From the NCBI RefSeq assembly GCF_004022705.2, contig NZ_RZOY02000001.1:440956-504955 (forward strand): DNA of 64,000 nucleotides, read 5' to 3'. Positions 40,546 through 45,049 of the stretch are shown here, piece after piece (position 1 is the stretch's first letter; each line of letters starts with the position of its first letter). Both the position numbers and the translations under genes were made by a program. A model generated the notes under the pieces. The model ran no database searches and had not been told where the DNA came from. It was given only the letters and a program-made list of their open reading frames with translations. The DNA is from Mesorhizobium sp. M2D.F.Ca.ET.226.01.1.1 (lineage in GTDB: Bacteria; Pseudomonadota; Alphaproteobacteria; Rhizobiales; Rhizobiaceae).

Positions 40546-41450
40546 GGCTTGCCGTCACCGGACGCGAGGGCCAAGTCGCTGCAAGCCTGGTCGAGGCGGC
40601 GCGGGGCCGCGACGATGTCGAGGTCGTCGCCGTCGGCCGGCCCGCGCTCGATCTGGCGCGGCCCGACACGGTCTTCGCAGCGCTCGAGACGGCAAGGCCC
40701 GACATCGTCGTTTCCGCCGCCGCCTACACCGCCGTCGACCAGGCCGAGGACGAGAAGGACCTGGCCTTCGCGGTGAACGCCGTCGGCGCCTGCAAAGTGG
40801 CCGAAGCCGCGGCAAGGCTCGGCGTTCCGGTCATCCATCTGTCGACCGACTATGTCTTCGACGGCAGCAAGGACGGCGCCTACGTCGAGACAGACGCCAC
40901 CGCCCCGCTCGGCGTCTACGGCGCTTCCAAGCTCGCCGGCGAAGAGGCGGCGACCACCGCCAACCCGCGCCACCTCATCCTGCGCACCGCCTGGGTCTAC
41001 AGCCCCTTCGGCAAGAACTTCGTCAAGACGATGCTGAGGCTCGCCACCGATCGCGATGAGATTTCGGTCGTCGCCGATCAATGGGGCAATCCGACCTCGG
41101 CCTTCGACATCGCCGACGCGATCCTGCATGTGGCGGCCAGGCTGCGAGCCGACAGGAATTTCGCCGCCTTCGGTGTCTACCACCTGGCGGGCGAGGGCGA
41201 CACCAACTGGAGCGGCTTTGCCCGTCACATCCTCGACACAAGCAGGGCGTTCGGCGGCCCGCACGCGAGGGTGCGAGATATCGCCACGGTGGACTATCCG
41301 ACCAAGGCCAGGCGGCCGCAAAATTCGCGGCTGTCGAGCGCGAGGTTTCAGAGCGTGTTCGGTTGGCATGCGCCGCATTGGCGGGTAGCAACGGAAAGCG
41401 TGGTTCGGCGGCTGGGGGGCGGCGGGACGAAACAGGCATTGAGTGCATGA
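40542..41450 (+). CDS. rfbD: dTDP-4-dehydrorhamnose reductase
   Basis: 302 residues. [14 protein letters not shown] is the NAD(P)H site with the GxxGQ pattern of Rml[17 protein letters not shown] and [14 protein letters not shown] give the Thr-Tyr-Lys catalytic set; [20 protein letters not shown] is the substrate region. It finishes dTDP-L-rhamnose. GTG at 40542 overlaps rfbB by four bases, and its TGA overlaps the ATG of the next gene, so the large fusion protein is part of the same operon. Confidence 0.95.
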
Positions 41451-44400: not shown

Positions 44401-45049
44401 GAACCTCTCGAATGCTGGTGAAGTAGACCTTTTAGTCACGCTGCGGCGCGACGCTCCGGGCACTGCTGCCGAGCGCGTCCTCAGCGCTTTCCCTAATGCG
44501 CGTCTTTCGTATTTCCGCAACCGCGGCCGCGATATGCAGCCGTTTCTCCAGCTTTTGCCACTTCTTCTAAGCGAAGGCTACGAATTGGCCTGCAAGGTTC
44601 ATAGCAAGAAGTCGCCACATCGGCGTGATGGCAATGCCCTTAGGAGCAGCGCGTTGAGCAGCCTTTTGGGATCGCGAGAACACGTGAAGCAAATTGCCCG
44701 ACGTTTCGAAAAGGACCGTAAATTGGGGCTGATGGCACCGGCCGGAACGCTTCTTGATTTGGGTGAGCTGGAGAGGAACATCCTCAATCGCAGTTGGTTG
44801 GACCGGCTGTTGCCTAGACTCGGAATGCAAGCTCAAATCGGTCGTTACGACACTGTTTTTCCTGCAGGCTCGATGTTCTGGTTCAGACCGAAAGCTCTAA
44901 GGCTGCTTGCAGATCTGTCGCTAGGTCCTGACGACTTTGAGGAGGAGGTCGGGCAGATCGACGGAACGCTGGCCCATGCAATCGAGCGACTGACCGCCGC
45001 CGTGGCTTTGCACGAAGGCTACTCAGTCGGCGAAACCGATTCTCGCTGA
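41447..45049 (+). CDS. Sulfotransferase-coiled coil-WbsX-RgpF polysaccharide protein
   Basis: 1200 residues in four parts. (1) About 38-265 is a sulfotransferase-like domain: [20 protein letters not shown] is the 5'-phosphosulfate loop and [20 protein letters not shown] the 3'-phosphate motif that bind PAPS. (2) About 330-455 is a coiled coil, then [10 protein letters not shown], a linker common in glycosyltransferase fusions. (3) About 595-945 is a WbsX domain: [57 protein letters not shown]. (4) About 968-1195 is an RgpF (rhamnan synthesis) domain: [29 protein letters not shown]. No membrane segment is seen. It is coupled to rfbD by ATGA, so it probably assembles and perhaps sulfates a rhamnose-rich chain. 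GC3 bias is lower than in the rfb genes. Confidence 0.85.
   Translation: [1200 protein letters not shown]

What the first reader, a model, noticed from the sequence alone, without database searches (positions are those of the whole stretch)
41447..45049. Four-part sulfotransferase/coiled-coil/WbsX/RgpF protein
One 1200-residue protein combines a PAPS-binding sulfotransferase-like domain (HRSGTS loop near residue 48), a long coiled coil, a WbsX domain and an RgpF domain, and is translationally coupled to rfbD. The parts are known singly or in other combinations; this order may be uncommon. It could add rhamnose and sulfate to one chain in a single complex.
Basis: partly seen in the sequence, partly recalled or inferred. 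Interest (0 to 1): 0.75.

Follow-up and report, generated by a model that had tools for sequence, protein, structure and literature searches.

The report
Sulfotransferase-headed polysaccharide assembly protein
A soil Mesorhizobium encodes one long protein with sugar-chain-building parts at one end and a sulfate-adding domain at the other, held apart by a helical spacer; it may stop and label growing surface sugar chains with sulfate, a variant of a known layout that I did not find described in the papers I could search.

Summary
The 1200-residue protein is real: a PAPS-type sulfotransferase domain, a helical spacer, WbsX, and the C-terminal half of RgpF, starting 4 bases inside rfbD. The sulfotransferase keeps the nucleotide-binding motifs and models like tyrosylprotein sulfotransferases (Z 15.4). 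The full order is rare, not unique: four other single-ORF copies among 79 related loci; sulfotransferase-spacer-WbsX proteins occur in many phyla.

Best reading: a polymerase-terminator like Klebsiella O7 ORF6, with a sulfotransferase where that has a methyltransferase-kinase. Support: methyltransferases occupy the same slot in 7 related WbsX proteins (GT2-like domains in up to 11 others); a SWR..P motif near the spacer end occurs in 14 of 26 proteins with either head, 2 of 56 without; Wzt with a sugar-binding domain lies near 11 of 19 sulfotransferase fusions, 10 of 60 others. Against: two methyltransferases follow wzt here, Wzt is poorly conserved between strains, and a stand-alone relative sits beside a Wzt-like ATPase lacking that domain.

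WbsX models as a GH99-like barrel with both catalytic glutamates. The nearby cysDNCQ genes are a common neighbour in the genus, hence no specific evidence. End-cap versus internal sulfation is unproven.

The parts
41447..45049 (+). 1200-residue protein: sulfotransferase - helical spacer - WbsX - RgpF
41570..42163 (+). sulfotransferase domain (residues 42-239, PF13469)
   Evidence: fold (TPST1 5wrj_C, Z 15.4, rmsd 4.1, 216 aligned)
41582..41605 (+). GMHRSGTS loop (residues 46-53), expected 5'-phosphosulfate-binding loop
   Evidence: G46, H48, S50, G51 in 25 of 25 and R49, T52 in 24 of 25 aligned relatives
41870..41881 (+). K142-x-P-R145 motif; K142 lines up with the K of KDP in tick TPST
   Evidence: 24 of 25, at a score too low to stand alone
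41957..41983 (+). R171..S179 motif, expected 3'-phosphate-binding residues
   Evidence: 25 of 25; lines up with R and S of SULT and TPST
42326..42895 (+). helical spacer, probable coiled coil (helices 294-426, 432-483)
   Evidence: weak Fourier result
42842..42877 (+). [12 protein letters not shown] motif near the end of the helical spacer (residues 466-477)
42902..42955 (+). amphipathic segment (residues 486-503), candidate membrane contact
   Evidence: hydrophobic moment 0.61; best window of the stretch ranks 4 of 1182
43235..44254 (+). WbsX domain (597-936), GH99-like barrel model
44192..44203 (+). E916 and E919, lined up with GH99 E333/E336
   Evidence: 33 of 33; alignment, weak score
44309..45022 (+). 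RgpF domain, C-terminal half of the family (955-1192)
37957..41450 (+). rfbA, rfbC, rfbB, rfbD (dTDP-L-rhamnose synthesis)
   Evidence: ORFs; NTP_transferase 245.9, dTDP_sugar_isom 230, GDP_Man_Dehyd 286.3, RmlD 333.1 bits; same order in L060 and L061
45200..45985 (+). Wzm, ABC-2 permease
   Evidence: PF01061 86.3 bits
45969..47384 (+). Wzt, ABC ATPase with C-terminal carbohydrate-binding domain
   Evidence: PF00005 84.6 bits, Wzt_C PF14524 102.3 bits
47381..48217 (+). TylF-type O-methyltransferase
   Evidence: PF05711 285.5 bits
48214..49515 (+). rhamnosyl O-methyltransferase/CmcI-type methyltransferase
   Evidence: PF04989 101.5 bits
49512..50420 (+). GT2-like protein
   Evidence: PF00535 19.9 bits, under its cut-off of 23.3
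50594..54189 (+). right flank of the variable cassette: PglF-like (name recalled), GT2, bacterial sugar transferase
   Evidence: PF02719 301.7 bits; PF00535 58 and PF02397 173 bits; conserved neighbours
56788..60507 (+). cysD, cysNC and a cysQ-like ORF (PAPS synthesis and, by name recalled, PAP removal)
   Evidence: Inositol_P 159 bits for the last

Best explanation
It is a one-polypeptide polymerase-terminator of an ABC-exported, rhamnose-containing surface polysaccharide. The C-terminal WbsX and RgpF modules sit near the membrane and lengthen the lipid-linked chain. The helical spacer rises from there and holds the sulfotransferase at its far end, so that only chains long enough to reach it are sulfated from PAPS at the non-reducing end. 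Sulfate then stops growth and is the mark, alone or together with methyl groups, that the Wzt C-terminal domain reads before Wzm/Wzt export the chain. Shown: domains, motifs, folds by model, gene order, slot exchange with methyltransferases. Inferred: enzyme activity, end-cap rather than internal sulfation, ruler function, reading by Wzt.
For: Same layout as K. pneumoniae O7 ORF6 (N-terminal methyltransferase, central coiled coil, two C-terminal GT modules); in the K. pneumoniae systems discussed there the terminator lies at the far end of the coil (PMC11231755, passages and Discussion part 1). Heads are exchanged on the same chassis: of 82 WbsX ORFs in 79 loci, 19 have the sulfotransferase and 7 a methyltransferase in the N-terminal slot (own profiles; Pfam on 18 chosen members). 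The spacer motif goes with either head, 14 of 26, against 2 of 56 without, or 2 of 28 if only others with N-terminal parts of 200+ residues count (Fisher 3.7e-7 and 2.3e-4). Wzt_C near the gene in 11 of 19 sulfotransferase fusions against 10 of 60 others (p 0.0009; 9 of 17 without L060 and L061, p 0.004). The 20 spacers have heptad contrast z 2.6-11.4, with 0 to 2 of 300 shuffles reaching it, and run 234-629 residues. A Mesorhizobium relative (L161, 448 aa) is sulfotransferase-like domain + spacer ending in SWRLTAPLR, with three RgpF ORFs and a Wzt-like ATPase nearby: the stand-alone WbdD format. L060 keeps rfb-protein-Wzm-Wzt, and the one long ORF between wzt and pglF is GT-D-like, not a methyltransferase.
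Against: No biochemistry. In the window two methyltransferases directly follow wzt and could make the cap; L061 has two methyltransferase ORFs before wzm. The slot also holds GT2-like domains (up to 11 of 35 non-sulfotransferase N-terminal parts), so it is not reserved for caps. Wzt differs far more between the window and L060/L061 (36% over most of its length; 48% over the ATPase part) than Wzm (75-77%) or this protein (78-89%). 8 of 19 sulfotransferase fusions have no Wzt_C within the held flanks, and the ATPase beside L161 has none. Pfam sees the domain poorly in relatives: under the cut-off in L062, L120, L126, L132, not at all in L161 at E 0.001, and E 0.2 in L129; their assignment rests on my own profile and motifs. 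The Fourier test of the window's spacer was not significant. Loci are related, not independent. One relative (L071) has lost R49, T52, E83, K142.
Confidence: 0.5

Rival explanations
1. The sulfotransferase decorates internal residues of each repeat; the spacer is only a scaffold and length is set otherwise.
For: Sulfated LPS made with PAPS is reported for M. loti (PMC6192434 passage), and a sulfotransferase KpsS with fucosyl activity is cited for it (PMC11625862 passage); neither passage speaks of a cap. 8 of 19 fusions have no Wzt_C in the flanks.
Against: Slot exchange with methyltransferases and the shared spacer motif; enrichment of Wzt_C; stand-alone sulfotransferase-spacer protein.
Confidence: 0.27
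2. The methyltransferases TylF and CmcI make the cap that Wzt reads; the sulfotransferase domain is a minor decorator or a non-catalytic acceptor-binding domain.
For: Both methyltransferases follow wzt in overlapping frames; L061 has two methyltransferase ORFs between this gene and wzm.
Against: In L060 no methyltransferase was found between this gene and pglF; binding motifs are conserved in 24-25 of 25 relatives.
Confidence: 0.14
3. WbsX is not a chain-building module but a GH99-type hydrolase or transglycosidase that trims or transfers chains within the complex. This concerns one domain and is compatible with the best explanation.
For: GH99-like barrel: 5ngw Z 25.2 (rmsd 2.9, 286 aligned), MANEA 6zdf_C Z 23.9 (rmsd 3.5, 286 aligned); both GH99 catalytic glutamates kept in 33 of 33.
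Against: WbsX adjoins GT-family modules or RgpF in polysaccharide proteins of many phyla. In Burkholderia gladioli, mutants in a long protein called WbsX were read as having aberrant O-antigen and milder defects than a Wzt mutant (PMC13391952 passages). A fold shows no function.
Confidence: 0.35
4. An ordinary fusion of neighbouring polysaccharide genes without a combined function.
For: The cassette between rfbD and pglF is highly variable in the genus, so fusions may arise readily.
Against: The order sulfotransferase-spacer-WbsX recurs in many phyla, with the spacer motif.
Confidence: 0.09

Closest known systems
K. pneumoniae O7 ORF6 (PMC11231755)
   Same: One protein: terminator at the N-terminus, central coiled coil, two C-terminal sugar-transfer modules; ABC export; rhamnose-containing chain
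   Different: Terminator there is a methyltransferase-kinase, here a sulfotransferase; GT modules there are GT2, here WbsX and RgpF
E. coli O9a WbdD (PMC3482155) and K. pneumoniae O12 WbbB (as described in PMC11231755)
   Same: Terminating enzyme with a coiled coil; for O9a, export with a Wzt carbohydrate-binding module
   Different: Caps differ (methylphosphate for O9a; Kdo for O12 is recalled); WbdD carries no polymerase; no sulfotransferase
Tyrosylprotein and other PAPS sulfotransferases (PF13469/PF00685)
   Same: Fold and both nucleotide-binding motifs
   Different: 9-19% identity in the structural alignments; acceptor unknown; fused to a polymerase
GH99 endo-alpha-mannosidases
   Same: WbsX model and EW.E glutamate pair
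   Different: 11-17% identity; in biosynthetic proteins; substrate unknown
M. loti KpsS and nodPQ-dependent sulfated polysaccharides (Townsend and co-workers; seen only as cited in PMC11625862 and PMC6192434)
   Same: Same genus, PAPS-dependent sulfation of surface polysaccharide
   Different: KpsS was not compared here; no fusion is mentioned in the passages seen

Membership tests
PAPS-dependent sulfotransferase (PF13469) | Family profile over curated cut-off | tested here: met
   28.2 bits against 27, narrow; 31.5 bits in the genome search
PAPS-dependent sulfotransferase (PF13469) | 5'- and 3'-phosphate-binding motifs | tested here: met
   loop residues, R171 and S179 in 24-25 of 25 relatives; lined up with SULT and TPST
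PAPS-dependent sulfotransferase (PF13469) | Sulfotransferase fold | tested here: met
   TPST1 Z 15.4, rmsd 4.1, 216 aligned; 16 of 17 Foldseek rows with E up to 0.001 are sulfotransferases
PAPS-dependent sulfotransferase (PF13469) | Sulfate transfer from PAPS | not testable with these tools
   needs an assay
Polymerase-terminator (WbdD/WbbB/O7 ORF6 type) | ABC export with Wzt carbohydrate-binding domain | tested here: met
   Wzm, Wzt and Wzt_C 102.3 bits
Polymerase-terminator (WbdD/WbbB/O7 ORF6 type) | Extended coiled coil between terminator and polymerase | tested here: inconclusive
   helix model, heptad z 3.1, Fourier test not significant
Polymerase-terminator (WbdD/WbbB/O7 ORF6 type) | Membrane-proximal amphipathic helix | tested here: inconclusive
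   hydrophobic moment rank 4 of 1182; model pLDDT near 50 there
Polymerase-terminator (WbdD/WbbB/O7 ORF6 type) | Polymerase GT modules at the C-terminus | tested here: inconclusive
   RgpF by Pfam; WbsX has a GH99-like fold
Polymerase-terminator (WbdD/WbbB/O7 ORF6 type) | End-cap and length control | not testable with these tools
   needs glycan analysis
GH99 | Fold and catalytic glutamate pair | tested here: met
GH99 | Significant sequence relation to solved GH99 enzymes | tested here: inconclusive
   OpGH99A E 0.00084, whose aligned stretch lacks the pair; the Bacteroides GH99s E 0.25-0.28
GH99 | Hydrolysis of alpha-mannosides | not testable with these tools
   needs an assay

The most novel reading that the evidence does not exclude
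Sulfate is a chain-terminating and export-licensing cap for ABC-exported bacterial polysaccharides: a further head, next to the known methyl, methylphosphate and Kdo caps, on an exchangeable spacer chassis spread over many phyla; and the module next to the spacer (WbsX) is a GH99-derived barrel that builds sugar chains.
Probability: 0.37. Interest if true: 0.75.

Novelty: new variant of a known kind. Interest (0 to 1): 0.57.

Why it matters
If right, it adds sulfate to the small set of known end-caps that set polysaccharide length and license export, in a genus where a nodPQ mutant lacking sulfated polysaccharides is reported to nodulate less (PMC6192434 passage). It also turns 'glycosyltransferase WbsX', a label carried by many polysaccharide proteins, into a testable question: a GH99-fold domain with both catalytic glutamates kept inside a chain-building protein.

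Tried and rejected
cysDNCQ as a dedicated PAPS supply for this protein: rejected as evidence. Of 8 Mesorhizobium regions fetched, 6 show cysD/cysNC with rfb-, pglF- or sugar-transferase-like neighbours (G516, G609, G689, G486, G589, G451); of these G516, G609 and G486 have no match to this protein at E 1e-20. G645 and G628 do not show it clearly in the stretch fetched. An earlier count said 8 of 8; that is wrong.

Unique architecture: rejected. Co-variation of Wzt_C with the methyltransferases: not seen (L060 without and L061 with methyltransferases have Wzts 62% alike over the whole length), but only three strains were compared.

Single-sequence phmmer of the whole protein against the PDB found nothing up to E 1; NCBIfam (E 0.01) and PHROGs (E 0.001) found nothing for it. 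Sulfotransferase-profile hits to GGA1 and TFB3 lie in the helical part and were taken as chance. Foldseek with the WbsX-RgpF model also lists GT-like rows (prob. 0.82-0.96, E 0.0056 and above) that may belong to RgpF, but the table does not tell the region, and the VIA list barely tests that part; the RgpF fold is left open.

Literature: WbsX with RgpF 0 papers; WbsX alone 25, largely filarial antigens by title, one read for passages (PMC13391952); WbdD with ruler terms 7; GH99-like with glycosyltransferase and polysaccharide 0; sulfotransferase + O-antigen + Wzt + sulfate 3; 9 with at least 5 of 6 termination/sulfated terms; sulfotransferase + chain terminat + O-polysaccharide 1; 18 with at least 3 of 5 ruler/sulfotransferase terms, 12 listed. 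No title or abstract start listed describes a sulfotransferase terminator, but four papers I wanted (a review, the WbbB paper, two on M. loti) are not held, so absence from print is not established. Aeromonas salmonicida has a separate small sulfotransferase-domain ORF listed between Wzt and WbbB; no such residue seemed to be found in its O-antigen (PMC4483657 passages).

Rows dropped: A1 to A3 dropped a duplicate L061 row, L121, L130 and L074:3188 (poorly aligned); L060 was left out of alignments because its ORF has 12 masked residues; A2 used 32 of 38 prepared loci rows (near-duplicates L077, L079, L080, L087, L090, L109 left out); A5 also left out L071:2574.

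Full report
Observation. The ORF at 41447-45049 (+) encodes 1200 residues and its ATG overlaps the stop of rfbD by 4 bases. Pfam finds Sulfotransfer_3 (42-239, just over its cut-off), WbsX (597-936) and the C-terminal half of RgpF (955-1192). The genome is a Mesorhizobium by its nearest named relatives: L060 (strain ORS 3428, 78% identical) and L061 (WSM3859, 89%) carry the protein full length. PF05045 matches once in this genome.

How common. Own profiles for the three domains were run over the ORFs of 140 loci. Single ORFs with all three: the window's gene, L060, L061, L062 (gammaproteobacterial MAG) and L066 (Chloroflexi MAG). Sulfotransferase plus WbsX without RgpF: 15 ORFs, among them alpha-, gamma- and delta-proteobacteria, Bacteroidales, Acidobacteria and Verrucomicrobia (record titles). 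WbsX-RgpF without sulfotransferase: 39 ORFs, one of which (L001) is a cut piece of the window's own gene and two of which (L003, L107) are the same gene. The loci were chosen by similarity to the query, so these are not frequencies in nature. In 385 class-level and 397 order-level genomes the only match covering the whole query is the window's own, though these searches list best local matches. In L108, L120, L126 and L129 WbsX is followed by group-1 and family-2 glycosyltransferase domains in place of RgpF.

Sulfotransferase domain. In 25 aligned domains the loop, K142, R145, R171 and S179 are kept in 24 or 25, as is E83, a possible catalytic base (inference). The odd row is L071, which has lost R49, T52, E83 and K142. 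The model (blocks of 10 residues mostly above pLDDT 90 in this part) matches tyrosylprotein sulfotransferases best: Z 15.4, rmsd 4.1, 216 aligned; Foldseek agrees (E 2.1e-5; 16 of 17 rows up to E 0.001 are sulfotransferases, one is a PFKFB enzyme). Profile alignment puts R171 and S179 on the SULT motif, and K142, R171 and S179 on the KDP lysine and R..S motif of tick TPST at scores too low to stand alone. Pfam's own models see the domain poorly in relatives: 56 bits in L066, 30.8 in L108 and 28.8 in L061, but 24.2, 19.2, 23.7 and 23.7 in L062, L120, L126 and L132 (cut-off 27), E 0.2 in L129 and nothing at E 0.001 in L161; there the assignment rests on my profile and the motifs. The genome has other sulfotransferase-like ORFs, two of them much stronger PF13469 matches (159.0 and 157.8 bits), so sulfation in this strain need not come from this protein.

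Spacer. Helices are predicted at 294-426 and 432-483. Heptad contrast is high in the 20 spacers between sulfotransferase and WbsX (z 2.6-11.4; window 3.1; 0 to 2 of 300 shuffles reach the observed value), while domain controls have mean z 0.65 (up to 2.7) and 0.06 (up to 1.5). A first, Fourier-type test on the window alone was not significant at 3.5. Spacer length runs from 234 to 629 residues. Eleven of 20, the window included, hold an S.SW[RK] motif. The stretch 486-503 behind it in the window is strongly amphipathic (rank 4 of 1182).

WbsX and RgpF. The model of 561-1200 is good (pLDDT 89.3). WbsX is a GH99-like barrel: 5ngw (OpGH99A) Z 25.2, rmsd 2.9, 286 aligned; human MANEA 6zdf_C Z 23.9, rmsd 3.5, 286 aligned. 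The profile places its invariant NEW.E on the NEWHE of Bacteroides GH99 (E 0.26, the stretch by itself not significant); counted along the printed chain of 4ad1 these glutamates are 333 and 336, the residues changed in variants named in PDB titles. So E916 and E919 correspond, and both are invariant in 33 of 33. The best hit, OpGH99A, lacks the pair in the aligned stretch. The Pfam label 'glycosyltransferase' is therefore not secure. In Burkholderia gladioli, phage-selected mutants in a long protein called WbsX, in a cluster with Wzt, were read as having aberrant O-antigen (PMC13391952 passages); that fits a role in chain building but does not show the activity. The RgpF part gave no clear fold match.

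Surroundings. Upstream lie rfbA, rfbC, rfbB, rfbD, downstream Wzm, Wzt with Wzt_C, TylF and CmcI-type methyltransferases and a GT2-like ORF. In the genus the stretch between rfbD and the pglF/sugar-transferase genes varies: G609 goes from rfbD straight to pglF, G589 and G451 have a WbsX fusion in which my profile finds no sulfotransferase, G689 has a stand-alone sulfotransferase-spacer protein with a Wzt-like ATPase and three RgpF ORFs. That 448-residue protein ends in SWRLTAPLRLIRRLFARG, the format of WbdD; but Pfam finds nothing in it at E 0.001, and the ATPase has no Wzt_C. cysD, cysNC and a cysQ-like ORF lie about 12 kb downstream; the only strong APS kinase match of the genome is there and the second PF01507 match is elsewhere, probably cysH. 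The same neighbourhood exists without this protein, so it shows PAPS supply, not a specific link.

Why a terminator. In the K. pneumoniae systems the terminating enzyme lies at the far end of a coiled coil; O7 ORF6 is one protein with methyltransferase, coil and two GT modules (PMC11231755, passages and Discussion part 1). Terminated chains are recognised by the carbohydrate-binding module of Wzt, and wbdD mutants make unmodified chain while termination is essential for export (PMC3482155 passages). Three tests support that our protein follows this plan. First, the N-terminal slot of WbsX proteins holds the sulfotransferase in 19 of 82 ORFs, a methyltransferase in 7, other or nothing in 56; among 35 non-sulfotransferase N-terminal parts of 200+ residues, 7 match methyltransferase and up to 11 GT2-like families, so the slot is not reserved for caps. 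Second, the spacer motif occurs in 10 of 19, 4 of 7 and 2 of 56 of these (Fisher 3.7e-7 for either head against others; 2.3e-4 against the 28 others with a long N-terminal part). Third, Wzt_C is encoded in the flanks of 11 of 19 sulfotransferase fusions and 10 of 60 others (p 0.0009; without L060 and L061 9 of 17, p 0.004), in six cases (L066, L108, L120, L126, L129, L132) in the gene directly upstream. Loci share ancestry and flanks differ in length, so these p-values are optimistic.

What speaks against. Wzt is the least conserved of the shared cassette genes between the three Mesorhizobium strains; methyltransferases are present in the window and in L061, though in L060 the ORF between wzt and pglF is GT-D-like; 8 of 19 fusions show no Wzt_C nearby. 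Internal sulfation stays a serious rival. M. loti is reported to make PAPS-dependent sulfated LPS (PMC6192434 passage) and to have a sulfotransferase KpsS (PMC11625862 passage), so sulfate on surface polysaccharide is expected in the genus, but not where.

Verdict. Real, uncommon, and a new variant of a known kind: most likely a polymerase-terminator protein with a sulfotransferase head. The searches for earlier descriptions listed none, in a library that lacks at least one main review and the WbbB paper.

Noticed in passing
L161 13508-14851 (-), unnamed Mesorhizobium G689: Stand-alone 448-residue sulfotransferase-like-domain and spacer protein ending in SWRLTAPLRLIRRLFARG, near a Wzt-like ATPase without Wzt_C and three RgpF ORFs, in the same chromosomal neighbourhood.
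   Followed up: partly
L061 18023-18580 (-): A separate small ORF that is only a Wzt_C-like domain, about 30% identical to that of the neighbouring Wzt: a detached cap reader or a remnant.
   Followed up: no
L071 2574-3539 (+): A sulfotransferase domain in a WbsX fusion that has lost the loop arginine and threonine, E83 and K142, while another ORF of the locus (11709-12665) keeps them.
   Followed up: no
window 56788-60507: cysD, cysNC and a cysQ-like ORF sit beside the variable polysaccharide cassette in 6 of 8 Mesorhizobium regions fetched, whatever the cassette holds.
   Followed up: partly
window 43235-44254: WbsX, annotated as a glycosyltransferase, models as a GH99-like barrel with both catalytic glutamates.
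   Followed up: partly
L062 9989-14617 and 15368-19909: Two successive long ORFs that both begin with the sulfotransferase domain; the first ends in an extra methyltransferase domain.
   Followed up: no
window 31245-32279 (+): ORF that reads like a NodB-type polysaccharide deacetylase (recalled from sequence, no search), upstream of the polysaccharide locus.
   Followed up: no
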